Assembly (NCBI RefSeq): GCF_003324165.1
Contig: NW_025407875.1
Location: 102,236-166,235, forward strand
Origin: Naegleria lovaniensis
Taxonomy: Eukaryota; Heterolobosea; Eutetramitea; Acrasida; Naegleriidae
Direction of reading: 5' to 3'
DNA length: 64,000 nucleotides
The position numbers and the translations under genes are program-made. The notes under the pieces are model-generated. The model searched no databases. It saw only the letters and a program-made list of their open reading frames with translations, and had not been told where the DNA came from. The number at the start of each line of letters is the position of its first letter. Within the stretch, counting starts at the first letter, position 1. Positions 4,251-9,597 of the stretch are shown one piece after another.

Positions 4251-7200
4251 TTATTTTTCTGTTAAGGTTAGGGAATAATCTACCATTGCGTTCATTTGTT
4301 GTTGTGGAAGAGGTTGAGAAGACATGTCCTGAATGAACGTGACATTGTGCTTCTCTGTCATGGCTTTCAAATGTTCGGCTCTTTTCTTCAAATCAAATAA
4401 GAATTTTGTGGATGTCAGATAGATCTGACTATTGTCGACTCCTCCATTCTGCTGAGTATTATTATTCATGTTGCTCAAGTTTGAATTCGAGCTTGGTGAA
4501 AACAATGTACCACCAGTACCATCCTCTGCCAGTTGTTGCATCGACGACATGGACATATTCTTGTTCTGGCTAACAATTCCAATTGCACTGTCGACGTGCT
4601 CTAACATGGCCTTGAAATCTTTCTTGTAAAAACTTTCCTTTACTTGAACAAGCGCGTCATGAATAAGTTTCTGTTGATGATTGGCTTCACTCCATTCACA
4701 TTCGATGGTATAAACTTCAATGGCCTCAGATTTTCCTTTCAATCGAACAGAGTCCACAAAATAGCACACGAAACGATCTTTTACCTGGTCATAGGTATTT
4801 TGTCCAATCAGGATGGCAGTTTCATATCTCTTATTTAACATTTCCAATCGACCTGCAGTATTGACACTGTCTCCTAGAGCTATTTTGGTGAAAATAATGT
4901 TGTATTTGAATTAAATTGATAAAAAGTTGAATTATTGAATTACTCACCCGTATAATTGAGCCTTGAACGACTTCCAATATTTCTAAAATTATTTTGTTAA
5001 TAATTAGTTGTCAAACAAATGTTTAAATAATTGTTTAGAAATGGCAAATATTGCAAATGGTTACAAGAAATGATACATTAATCTCAAACGTACCCAATTA
5101 AAGCCATTCCAGTATTGATTCCAACACGCATTTTGATAATAGGCCAACCTTCTCTTTGGCATTTACTCTTCATATGGTCAAGCTTAACGATACTGGTTAG
5201 TGCAGAGAGACATGCCTGATGATGTTTCCATGATGGATACAATAAATTTCGTACAAAAAAACAACAACTTTACAACCTACCTTAACGGCGTGCTCATGAA
5301 CCATTCTTAAAGGAATTGAAAACAAGCTCATTATACCGTCGCCCTGAAACATTGCTCATTAGATTGCTAATAATTATAATGAAACCTACCAAATACTTGT
5401 CGATTACGCCCTCATTTACCTCAACACTCTCTGTCACAACATTAAAATATTCATTCATAACTTTGACAATAATTGCAGAATTTGTAGTTTCGCTAAAGTT
5501 TGTAAAATCCACAACATCTGTGAACATGATGGTGGTGAGTGCATGTTGCATTCCTAGCTTGGCAGTTCCACCTGTTCGTACAATATCTTTCACAATATCT
5601 CTAGGAATGAATTTCATAAATGATTGCAAGCCGTTTTTCACTGTATACAGAGAAGTTTGTAAAATACTCAATTCGTAGATCGCTTTCAACATTTTCCTCT
5701 TTCTAATATCCTCAATTTCAAGTTTCGATAATTTAAACAATTCTATGAGTATAGTAGTGAAACAATGACAACCATCAAGTCATAACACGACGAATGTGTG
5801 TCACCGTAAAACATTCACAATAACACGGAAACACAGAAGAATGAATTCGTGAAAATAAAACATGCCACCTACCTCTTGAAACACTCCATATGGATCGTGT
5901 GATGATTTGTGTCACAATAACCATGATCAATGTTCCACAAACAATTAAAATAATCGATATTGACAGCAATACAGGAGAGCTTGTGAACACAGTCTTAATG
6001 AAACCATATTCTTGCGTAGACACAATCATTACCCAATCTAAACCATCCTCACGAATGTAATGAATCGAAATCTTGTTCTGATCAATCATGAACTTGGTAG
6101 TCGATGCATTGACATCAATGAGCAATGACAAGTCACTTAAATTCGTTTGTGCACTTTGTGGGATTAAAATTTTCCTCTTCTCCAATTCATTGGAGGCTAA
6201 CGCAAAAACGGAAGTAGTTTTCGAAACGTGAATTCTTTGCTTGGCTTCATTCTGTGTCAAGGCTCCAAATGAGGTTGATATTAAAAATCCTGTCCTTTCC
6301 ACAATGACAACATCAATAGATTTTGTCTGCATATCCATATTATCTCTAATGATGTTCGACAGGATTGCATCTAAATTATACAAGTCAAAATGGATGCCTA
6401 AAATATGGTGTACAGAAAAGAGTTCAATAGTACCATTGGAGTGTCGAATAGTTTCAAAACTTGGAAATTCTAATTTTGAACTACTAGCAATGGAAATGCA
6501 GCCTAAAAATGCATTATTAAAAACTGTGGACCATGCAAATTTTGGAAAGGTGTTTTGAAGTCCAGTTTTATACCTGTATAGATGGGTACCAACATGTTAC
6601 AAATAATTTTCATATGAACAAATTGGAGTGTCATCATGACGAAACTTACCATGGTCTATATATACAATAATTGTTGATTTGAAACGTTGATTGCATTCAT
6701 GAAATGGTTGAGCAGGTAGTGGTGAAAAAACCAAATACATTGGTTTGGATGGATTCATTCCACACTTACCTAATGGTTGGATCATAATTTTCAACTACAA
6801 GAGAAACATTAATGGGGTCATAAAACTCATTGTGCGTATAGATCCATGTTTCTGCCTTGTCATTTCGTACCTGAACATAATCTCGAGTGACACTCTTCTC
6901 AACGCCACAATAATTCTTTCTATTATTTCCATAATAGAAGATTGTTGAGGCTGGAAATGCATTCTTTGAGGGAGCAAACACATTTGTCACTCGACGACAA
7001 ATGGTAGAATAGTCCGATGGAAATGTGTAATTGTAATCACGCGCCTGTATTAAGAATCCATATCGTAGCGTGGAGAGTGCTTCAAATGCAACACCCATAT
7101 ACGATTCAACACTCTTCTTAATGTTCTTTTCACGAATGGCAGAGATTTCCTCCAATGACGATTCTCCACTCGCATAAATCAGTACAATCATGGAACCAAT

Positions 7201-7737
7201 ACAAATTGCTGTTTGCATGAGAAAGAGTGCCAACAGTAAGTTTTGCAATGAATTCAGAGCAGGACAACACTCTCGGAAGGATCGAACTAATTTTTGAGAT
7301 CTCGACAGTCGCTGAGTAGAAGAGGCCAGTAAATCATCCAACGAAGAAGAGATGGACATGGATTCACTCATCATTGTACTTCCTGAAGTAGACTCTGAAT
7401 GTTGTAGTGTATGATAGGATTGAGATCTTTTACCTAATGAGGGATGATGAGCTGGAGTGGGCGTGGGAGTGCTTCCGTTCGTCATGATCATCATGTGTTG
7501 GTGGTTTTTAAGGCTTGATCCCGAAGGCATGCTTCCTTCAACAATATCATTTAAGGAATTGAGTGAGGCATCATGAACCTCTCCTTGTTGTGAATAGTGA
7601 GGTGTGGATGCTGGTGGTTGTTGATGAGAATGAAGAGGATGAATTTTAGATCGGCTAGCACTCTTTACAAGCTGAGAAGTTGATCCCATTCTTCGGCCAA
7701 CCATACCACCACTATTCGTTGAGGGTGATGGTTGCAT
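4251..7737 (-). CDS. Membrane adenylyl cyclase with dCache-like extracellular domain
   Basis: Eight exons, phase-consistent: 7737-6770, 6655-6650, 6573-5873, 5742-5390, 5343-5281, 5215-5094, 4982-4948, 4879-4251; 958 aa. A Ser/Pro-rich N-terminus leads to TM1 (CIGSMIVLIYAS region), an extracellular dCache-like domain with RPWYKTG, TM2 (SIILIVCGTLIMVIVTQII), a helical linker, and a class III cyclase domain. Visible catalytic features: metal Asp residues in MFTDVVDFTNF and KYLGDGIM, the Lys of DKYLGD matching the adenine-selecting Lys, Thr in LNYTALGDSVN at the position of its partner, and Asn/Arg in SVNTAGRLE for the transition state. This favours ATP to cAMP over GTP. Ligand-gated cAMP synthesis at the plasma membrane is the likely role. 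The C-terminal 130 residues are Asn/Gln/Ser-rich with short helices. No clear full HAMP domain was seen. Confidence 0.88.
6650..6655 (-). other. 6-nt microexon of the adenylyl cyclase gene
   Basis: On the minus strand the six bases ACCATG lie between TATATATAG and GTAAGTTT. The upstream exon ends in phase 2 (AG) at 6770 and the downstream exon resumes with one base (G) at 6573. Inserting the six bases keeps phase and gives Arg-Pro-Trp-Tyr, the conserved RPWY motif of dCache domains. Skipping it also stays in frame but gives Arg-Tyr, losing Pro-Trp. The flanking introns would be 114 and 76 bp, normal for this window. Confidence 0.8.
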
Positions 7738-8043: not shown

Positions 8044-9597
8044 CTAACACAAGCAACAACAGGTACAGCTTTGAGCTTGTCGTTGTTCTTCTTCGTCTCG
8101 ATTGGTTTTCTTGTTGTTGAAATTTTCGTGTCGTGCTGGATCCTTATCATCGGAATGATATAGATTACCACCACTTGGTTCATCTTGTTTCGACTTGGTA
8201 CTACTACTACCACTACTCTTTGAAACATGTAAAAAGTCAAAAATCATATCATTCAATTCCACTTCCTGATCTACTTGATGCAGATCATGTTTTGCAAGAT
8301 ACTTTTGAGGAATGGTTTCCAAATAATCAGAGGTGGGATCGAGTGGATTTTCCCACACATTATTATTGGGATCAGTGATCCATTCCTGTAATAATTGTTG
8401 ATTCACAACCATGGGAGGTGGTCGCATTGGTAATGAACGTCTCTTATTATGCTCTCGAAAGACACTTCTTGATCGTAAGGTAAAGAAGGAGGATGTCATC
8501 ATGGTCTTATGAAGAGCTCGACTTGGTTTCGATGTTGAAATGGTATGAGAGGTTTGATGATGCTGTTGCGATTTTCGAAGAGATTGACTACTTCCTGCAA
8601 GTGGTTTTAAGGAATTTTCAACTTGTAACGCTTTGGTAAACCACAAATCAAAAAGTTTGGCACATTGTTTGCAGAGTTTTTCTTCAATCGAGTTGACATT
8701 TCCAAAAATCATGACCTTGTAATCGAGTTGAATAGAGATGGTCACGGAAACGTTGGTTTGAATAGGTATTTGTGAATCGTCATGCATGTGATTCATTCTT
8801 GAAATACCACTGGTATCTATTAACAATTGATCATGGTGTGAACCAAGTTGAAAGGGTGGCTCCGTAACTTTTGACTTGAAATCAATGTCATCGACATTGT
8901 CAATGATGGTGATTTCATTAGTGCCAAATCGCACGGTATGGCTATCATCATTGTGTGACGACTGCGTTAAGCTATCACTATTCGAGGAAGTTGTCACCAT
9001 CGGAGATGGATGAGTGACCATGTGGTTGTTGTTATTGTCGTTGTTGGATGAAGTGTTGGGTGTGGTAGTCTCTAACGATGTGCTTGTCGATGTTGTCACA
9101 GATGAAGGGATGGACTTTGAATGATGATTCGCTTTCATAAAATAATTCTCTTCAATCTTGTTATTCTCATTCAAATCAAAATTTTGAATGAATTTGAAAT
9201 TCTTTTCTTGATTAAACAAAAACATTCCGGAAATACTTAAAGTTCCAGGAAATGGTTTTGATTCCTTCTCTAAAATACTAATTGTAAAAACAATTCGCAT
9301 CATTTCAAGCTCCGTGTTGTGACATGAATTTTCCTTTTCAAACTCAAATTCATCATTGAAAATCAATTGCTCTTCCAAAAGTGCGCAATATTGATTGTTA
9401 AAGACATGAACTTTTGTTTTCCGCACAAGTCGTGTTTGTGTTTCATCTAAAAACCAATCGCACACAATTTCAACACCATTCACTTTACTAAATGATTTTA
9501 AAAAATTAAAGTGAAAATCCGAAGACATGACAATACTCGAGAGTGCATCGAATGGAGAAAGTGTCTCGAAGGTTCGTGTGCATGTGTGATTGCGCAT
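8044..9597 (-). CDS. Uncharacterised protein with C-terminal cysteine cluster
   Basis: A single-exon gene of 517 codons; the ATG follows six A residues. I do not recognise a family. Residues about 15-140 are a compact mixed segment (SSDFHFNFLKSFSKVNG, HVFNNQYCALLEEQ, LSISGMFLFNQE). Residues about 270-330 (VSVTISIQLDYKVMIFG, then a Cys/Leu helix) look like a second structured part. Between and after them are Ser/Thr/Asn-rich linkers. A distant VASt/START-like lipid-binding fold is possible from the strand-helix pattern, but this is a guess. The protein ends SCTCCCLC: six cysteines in the last eight residues, ending Cys-X-Cys, which suggests palmitoylation or Rab-type prenylation and a membrane-attached C-terminus. 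Confidence 0.6.
   Translation of the reverse strand: MRNHTCTRTFETLSPFDALSSIVMSSDFHFNFLKSFSKVNGVEIVCDWFLDETQTRLVRKTKVHVFNNQYCALLEEQLIFNDEFEFEKENSCHNTELEMMRIVFTISILEKESKPFPGTLSISGMFLFNQEKNFKFIQNFDLNENNKIEENYFMKANHHSKSIPSSVTTSTSTSLETTTPNTSSNNDNNNNHMVTHPSPMVTTSSNSDSLTQSSHNDDSHTVRFGTNEITIIDNVDDIDFKSKVTEPPFQLGSHHDQLLIDTSGISRMNHMHDDSQIPIQTNVSVTISIQLDYKVMIFGNVNSIEEKLCKQCAKLFDLWFTKALQVENSLKPLAGSSQSLRKSQQHHQTSHTISTSKPSRALHKTMMTSSFFTLRSRSVFREHNKRRSLPMRPPPMVVNQQLLQEWITDPNNNVWENPLDPTSDYLETIPQKYLAKHDLHQVDQEVELNDMIFDFLHVSKSSGSSSTKSKQDEPSGGNLYHSDDKDPARHENFNNKKTNRDEEEQRQAQSCTCCCLC

What the first reader, a model, noticed from the sequence alone, without database searches (positions are those of the whole stretch)
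6574..6769. A 6-nt microexon supplies the Pro-Trp of the dCache RPWY motif
Seen: between the exon ending at 6770 (phase 2) and the one starting at 6573, the six bases 6655-6650 are flanked by a good acceptor (TATATATAG) and a strong donor (GTAAGT). Including them keeps phase and turns Ile-Arg|Tyr-Lys into Ile-Arg-Pro-Trp-Tyr-Lys. RPWY is a known conserved ligand-domain motif of Cache sensors. Skipping would also be in frame, so alternative inclusion could switch ligand sensing of the cyclase. Exons this short are near the lower limit known for spliceosomal splicing.
Basis: partly seen in the sequence, partly recalled or inferred. Interest (0 to 1): 0.78.

Follow-up and report, generated by a model that had tools for sequence, protein, structure and literature searches.

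The report
Six-base exon in amoeba cyclase gene
A receptor-cyclase gene of the amoeba Naegleria very probably contains a six-base exon that supplies two amino acids of its sensor domain; sister genes suggest it arose when a new intron landed six bases upstream of an older one, so it is a neat example of a known kind of oddity rather than a demonstrated molecular switch.

Summary
On the minus strand, exon 1 (7737-6770) and exon 3 (6573-5873) of a 958-aa receptor nucleotidyl cyclase are separated by 196 nt holding one stop-free, in-frame candidate exon of at most 60 nt: ACCATG at 6655-6650. It turns Ile-Arg|Tyr into Ile-Arg-Pro-Trp-Tyr. All 6 homologues covering the site carry the Trp, 4 of 6 the Pro; their profile scores inclusion 17.3 bits above skipping. 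The strongest evidence is new: two paralogues in the same genome (C57, C40) have a single intron exactly where this gene has its second, inside the Trp codon. So the microexon corresponds to the 3' end of a once larger exon, and the upstream 114-nt intron is most simply a later gain. The 'ligand-sensing switch' has no support: no transcript data were available, none of those 6 homologues lacks the two residues, and skipping needs a 196-nt intron where the published median is 80 bp. Splicing itself is inferred, not observed, and the Cache assignment is below Pfam cut-offs. Microexons of this size have been known since the 1980s. Verdict: very probably real and constitutive; a new member of a known kind.

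The parts
6770..7737 (-). Exon 1 of the receptor cyclase gene: ATG, N-terminal tail, first transmembrane stretch, first part of the sensor region; ends in phase 2 (ATT AG|)
6656..6769 (-). Intron 1, 114 nt, GTAAGT...TATATAG; absent at this position from paralogues C57, C40, C47, C4 and C5; most simply a later gain
   Evidence: single copy in the genome
6650..6655 (-). 6-nt microexon ACCATG, completing Arg323 and coding Pro324 and the first two bases of Trp325
6574..6649 (-). Intron 2, 76 nt, inside the Trp codon (TG|G); same position and phase as the single intron of C57 (59 nt) and C40 (44 nt)
5873..6573 (-). Exon 3: rest of the sensor region and second transmembrane stretch
5390..5742 (-). 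Exon 4: linker and start of the cyclase domain
5281..5343 (-). Exon 5 (63 nt), cyclase domain
5094..5215 (-). Exon 6, cyclase domain
4948..4982 (-). Exon 7 (35 nt), cyclase domain
4251..4879 (-). Exon 8: end of the cyclase domain and C-terminal tail, stop codon included

Best explanation
The gene is a receptor-type class III nucleotidyl cyclase of Naegleria, by inference N. lovaniensis. The Pro-Trp of its sensor motif is encoded by a 6-nt microexon that is probably included constitutively. Mechanism (inferred): both flanking introns are short with canonical ends, so each can be recognised across the intron and removed one after the other without the exon itself having to be defined; missing either removal gives an immediate in-frame stop. 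Origin (inferred from paralogues): an ancestral exon ended inside the Trp codon (TG|GTAAGT); a new 114-nt phase-2 intron then entered this gene 6 nt upstream, inside the Arg codon (AG|A), and cut off the last 6 nt of that exon. Shown: sequence anatomy, frame, conservation of the Trp, an intron position shared with two paralogues. Inferred: that splicing happens, constitutive use, intron gain rather than loss elsewhere, and a role of the Trp-Tyr pair in the sensor pocket.
For: Exact splice anatomy and only one stop-free in-frame candidate. Paralogues C57 (CGTCCTTG|GTAAGT...AATAG|GTACTTG) and C40 (AGAGATTG|GTAAGT...CACAG|GTACAAA) have one intron at the position of intron 2. Trp in 6 of 6 and Pro in 4 of 6 homologues covering the site, with no length change (4 of the 6 are from N. 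gruberi and Willaertia, 2 are the products of C57 and C40). Profile of those six: 1031.1 bits included, 1013.8 skipped. The RPW-coding form with this donor occurs once in the genome and in 0 of 200,000 simulated gaps. Further cyclase loci C22, C7, C4, C5 and C34 have RPW[LFY] in unbroken frames. The other five introns of this gene are 46-130 nt and the published median is 80 bp (PMC6125883, passages), so a 196-nt skipping intron would be unusually long for this gene.
Against: No transcript evidence. Paralogue C47 has an unbroken frame of equal length at the site without Pro-Trp, and C40 and Willaertia P0006 lack the Pro, so the motif is not indispensable in the family. Genomic DNA of N. gruberi, Willaertia or the P0003 contig was not available, so intron gain is judged from paralogues of the sister clade only, on a tree with two long branches and midpoint root. 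The source of the new intron is unknown.
Confidence: 0.82

Rival explanations
1. Regulated cassette microexon: both forms are made, and the skipped form (TIR-YKTG) is a receptor cyclase that no longer senses its ligand, so the cell tunes sensing by splicing.
For: Both introns are phase 2, so skipping stays in frame; W128/Y129 of PctA, the apparent counterpart, are conserved pocket residues in dCache_1 sensors (PMC11245519, passages).
Against: None of the 6 homologues covering the site shows a two-residue deletion; the frame symmetry follows from where the introns lie; skipping needs a 196-nt intron; no transcript of either form was available.
Confidence: 0.06
2. Constitutive skipping: intron 6769-6574 is removed whole, Pro-Trp has been lost from the protein, and ACCATG is a remnant.
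For: Donor and outer acceptor are both good; paralogue C47 also lacks Pro-Trp.
Against: A remnant should decay, yet acceptor AG, codons, phase and donor GTAAGT are all intact although this gene is only 37% and 36% identical in the aligned region to its paralogues C57 and C40; the profile prefers inclusion by 17.3 bits.
Confidence: 0.05
3. Same microexon, other history: both introns are ancestral, and the upstream intron was lost from the C57/C40 line.
For: This gene and C57/C40 lie on different sides of the tree, so one loss would do on that line.
Against: It needs an earlier gain as well as a loss, and loci C47, C4 and C5 have neither intron.
Confidence: 0.2
4. Artefact: the 114-nt insert is an assembly error or the gene is decaying.
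For: Reads could not be examined.
Against: All eight exons form one open frame with GT-AG junctions; the 114 nt are single-copy DNA; the published assembly is long-read based (PMC6125883, passages).
Confidence: 0.02

Closest known systems
Very short spliceosomal microexons: 6-nt exon of chicken cardiac troponin T, 5-nt exons of Drosophila Ubx, 3-nt exon of mouse Ncam (as listed in PMC8042270, passages)
   Same: Exon of 3-6 nt between two GT-AG introns, coding and (for 3 and 6 nt) frame-neutral
   Different: Those are confirmed by transcripts; this one is predicted, in a unicellular heterolobosean, with short introns and a likely origin visible in paralogues
Conserved plant microexons, 1-15 nt (PMC8831610, passages)
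   Same: Tiny coding exons missed by annotation, some within conserved motifs, with paralogues that lack the microexon structure
   Different: Those trace back to early land plants and some are explained by intron loss or retention in relatives; here intron gain next to an old intron is the simpler reading
dCache_1 sensors with a conserved Trp-Tyr/Phe pair: PctA W128/Y129, McpH W140/F141 (PMC11245519, passages)
   Same: Adjacent Trp and aromatic residue in the presumed membrane-distal part of a sensor region between two transmembrane stretches
   Different: Sequence match below Pfam cut-offs; pocket correspondence not tested by structure; output domain is a class III cyclase

Membership tests
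spliceosomal microexon | exon of at most about 15-30 nt flanked by introns with GT-AG ends | tested here: met
   6 nt between GTAAGT...TATATAG and GTAAGT...TATACAG
spliceosomal microexon | inclusion keeps an open reading frame that fits homologues | tested here: met
spliceosomal microexon | present in mature transcripts | not testable with these tools
   no RNA data in any collection used here
regulated (alternative) microexon | included and skipped transcripts both occur and vary with condition | not testable with these tools
   no RNA data; frame symmetry alone is no evidence
class III nucleotidyl cyclase (PF00211) | domain match above the curated cut-off | tested here: met
   69.2 bits, cut-off 21.9, residues 628-808
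dCache_1 / MCP-like PDC sensor | domain match above the curated cut-off | tested here: not met
   PF22673 14.4 bits against 27 in the included form, not listed for the skipped form, dCache_1 not listed; 6 of 8 relatives scanned give PF22673 or dCache_1 at E 0.047 to 0.00013, all below cut-off, P0005 and P0006 give neither. It is therefore called Cache-like, not filed as a member
dCache_1 / MCP-like PDC sensor | double PAS-like fold of the extracytoplasmic part | tested here: inconclusive
   model of paralogue P0002 (mean pLDDT 72.2) shows a mixed helix/strand sensor region, but the listed matches of the fold searches are to cyclase domains
dCache_1AA amino-acid sensor | further motif residues, among them Asp173 of PctA | not tested
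   no alignment to PctA was made; the ligand class stays open

The most novel reading that the evidence does not exclude
A single-celled, deep-branching eukaryote regulates a 6-nt microexon so that one receptor-cyclase gene gives a ligand-sensing and a ligand-blind receptor, and this switch came into being when an intron landed six bases from an existing splice site.
Probability: 0.06. Interest if true: 0.75.

Novelty: new member of a known kind. Interest (0 to 1): 0.36.

Why it matters
It looks like a microexon whose birth can still be read: paralogues keep the before state, one intron inside a Trp codon, and this gene has a second one 6 nt upstream. That makes intron gain beside an old splice site a testable route to microexons. 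It also warns that gene models can silently lose two conserved residues, because the skipped model is in frame and looks normal.

Tried and rejected
Duplication origin of intron 1: local alignments of intron 1 with intron 2, the upstream exon and the downstream stretch were not clearly better than shuffles (34, 166 and 62 of 300 reached the score); intron 2 against the upstream exon gave 20 of 300. Intron 1 as a repeated, introner-like element: the search found only its own copy in the genome.

Other RPW|GTRAGT sites: 8 hits in the genome, reversed control 4. 6 of the 8 are repeat ends, not cyclases. The remaining two are this gene and C57; C40 has RDW.

Orthologues that would show whether intron 1 is shared: the sensor part (residues 160-560) found 3 proteins among 4730 candidates; an alignment of those found 22 among the 7996 candidates scored, a capped list; the exon-1 peptide (323 aa) found none at E<=0.001 among 1988 candidates. 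Scans of genome contigs and viral contigs gave 68 and 114 pattern matches, none confirmed by tblastn. No public protein for this very gene was seen in those searches; the contig tools say that records of the window's own genome may be left out. How the published annotation treats the 6-mer is therefore unknown.

In the second (13 sequences, mean 72.2) RPWY (residues 224-227) lies at the start of a helix (225-232), but the 50 rows shown by Foldseek and by VIA are led by cyclase domains. A profile search of solved structures matched 64 sequences; in the 60 shown the best stretch lies in the cyclase part or just before it (from profile position 355 on), none in the sensor part. A paper on PctA-type receptors held none of the residue names sought (PMC6974571).

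The lists of invariant columns do not include the motif Trp, because C47 lacks it and P0003 and P0008 begin after it; I counted it from the rows.

Full report
Where it is. Two proteins named N. lovaniensis sit on contigs of 151,512 and 428,142 bases (C9374_012253; C9374_010015), the lengths of G000 contigs C57 and C40, and their sequences match the genes there. The organism is therefore inferred to be Naegleria lovaniensis; the published assembly has 111 contigs, 30.8 Mb and 37% GC (PMC6125883, passages).

The gene. On the minus strand eight exons give one open frame of 958 aa: 7737-6770, 6655-6650, 6573-5873, 5742-5390, 5343-5281, 5215-5094, 4982-4948 and 4879-4251 with stop. The protein has a class III cyclase domain (PF00211, 69.2 bits, cut-off 21.9). 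The sensor region before it resembles Cache/PDC sensors only below Pfam cut-offs: PF22673 scores 14.4 bits against 27 in the included form and is not listed for the skipped form. Of 8 relatives scanned, 6 give PF22673 or dCache_1 at E 0.047 to 0.00013, all below cut-off, and P0005 and P0006 give neither. Eight places in the genome match dCache_1 at E<=1, best 8e-8, none over the cut-off.

The 6-mer. ACCATG at 6655-6650 lies between TATATAG and GTAAGT. Both introns are phase 2, so AG|A-CCA-TG|G reads Arg323-Pro324-Trp325, followed by Tyr326. In the 196-nt gap there are three AG...GT segments of at most 60 nt, a multiple of three long, with at least 30 nt on either side; two contain stops and the 6-mer does not. 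Retaining either intron gives TAA at once.

Chance. AG-N6-GTAAGT as such is unremarkable in 64 kb: 3 matches, 0.78 expected, 5 of 100 shuffles reach 3. Coding the right residues at the right place and phase is not: AGNCCNTGGTAAGT occurs once in the genome, here, against 3 for the reversed pattern, that is, a few in 61 Mb of both strands. In 200,000 simulated gaps 61 held AG-N6-GTRAGT, 0 held the RPW form with GTRAGT, and 47 held RPW followed by any GT.

Conservation. Of 8 homologues aligned with the window protein, 6 cover the site: N. gruberi P0001 RPWF and P0005 RPWY, N. lovaniensis P0002 RPWY and P0004 RDWY (the products of C57 and C40), and Willaertia magna P0006 RLWY and P0007 RPWY. Trp is present in 6 of 6, Pro in 4 of 6, and none is shortened there. 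P0003 and P0008 begin downstream. A profile of the six scores 1031.1 bits with the microexon and 1013.8 without. Against: paralogue C47 has an unbroken frame of the same length there without Pro-Trp.

Origin. A search of the genome with the sensor region gave 11 matches at 8 loci, this gene included. C57 and C40 have one intron (59 and 44 nt) that splits the same Trp codon after TG, with donor GTAAGT and next exon G-TAC, and no intron at the Arg codon. C47, C4 and C5 run unbroken through the site. C2 seems to lack the upstream part (judged by eye from six-frame text), and C16 matched only the end of the query. Of the 8 dCache_1 matches, C22, C7, C4 and C34 show RPW[LFY] in an unbroken frame, and C8, C9, C35 and C3 gave no hit to my pattern. 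The tree pairs this gene with P0003 (100/98) near N. gruberi P0001, and puts C57/C40 with N. gruberi P0005; C47 and P0007 are long branches and the root is drawn at the midpoint. So the Trp-codon intron is older than that split, and the upstream intron is most simply a gain on this gene's line. Where it came from is unknown: the search found no second copy in the genome and no clear similarity to its neighbours.

How it probably works. The other five introns of this gene are 46-130 nt and the published median is 80 bp (PMC6125883); the two flanking the microexon, 114 and 76 nt, are of the same kind. Removing them one after another by recognition across the intron needs no recognition of a 6-nt exon; this is inference from general knowledge of splicing. 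In-frame skipping follows from both introns being phase 2 and is no evidence of regulation. If Pro-Trp were skipped, the sensor would lose the Trp that by motif corresponds to W128 of PctA, which together with Y129 forms the conserved aromatic pair of dCache_1 pockets (PMC11245519, passages). That correspondence was not tested by structure, since the rows shown by the fold searches are led by cyclase domains.

Compared with what is known. Exons of 6, 5 and 3 nt have been described since the 1980s (PMC8042270, passages), and 1-nt exons were confirmed by RT-PCR in plants (PMC8831610, passages). 'Microexon' or 'micro-exon' with 'Naegleria' found 0 papers in the held library. 'Microexons' with 'protists' found 4, none about protist microexons by title and start of abstract. 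It may be the first noted in the genus, but only that library, which lacks most subscription journals, was searched.

Verdict. What the tools add is its likely birth by intron gain six bases from an older intron.

Noticed in passing
G000 C6:309781, C8:762820, C11:140215, C16:169100 (L045-L048); C17:215757, C29:46574 (L049, L050): Near-identical repeats: L045-L047 share 1521 bp at 99.7-100%, L048 shares 1017 and 362 bp of it; all end in TGGTAAGTTGTAGTG with different DNA beyond. L049 and L050 share a second, 164-bp end (98.8%) with the same last bases. They look like recently active mobile elements whose end holds a GTAAGT.
   Followed up: partly
G000 C22, C8, C9, C7, C35, C3, C4, C34 (L052-L059): Eight sub-threshold dCache_1 matches, besides the family of this gene, although a 2016 survey reports Cache in a single Naegleria protein (PMC4822843, passage). 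The Cache-like sensors of Naegleria cyclases may be a larger, divergent group.
   Followed up: partly
L005 (G000 C47:104739-105803 +): A paralogous cyclase with an unbroken sensor frame that has lost the RPWY motif (DPTVDASYTT), a natural case of such a receptor without the Trp.
   Followed up: partly
L007 (G000 C2:1069949-1073374): A cyclase locus in which the upstream half of the sensor is not recognisable before the matching part, possibly a truncated or rearranged copy (by eye).
   Followed up: no
window 8044-9528, minus strand: The neighbouring upstream open frame (494 aa, from ATG) ends in a cysteine cluster, SCTCCCLC, perhaps a lipid-anchored tail.
   Followed up: no
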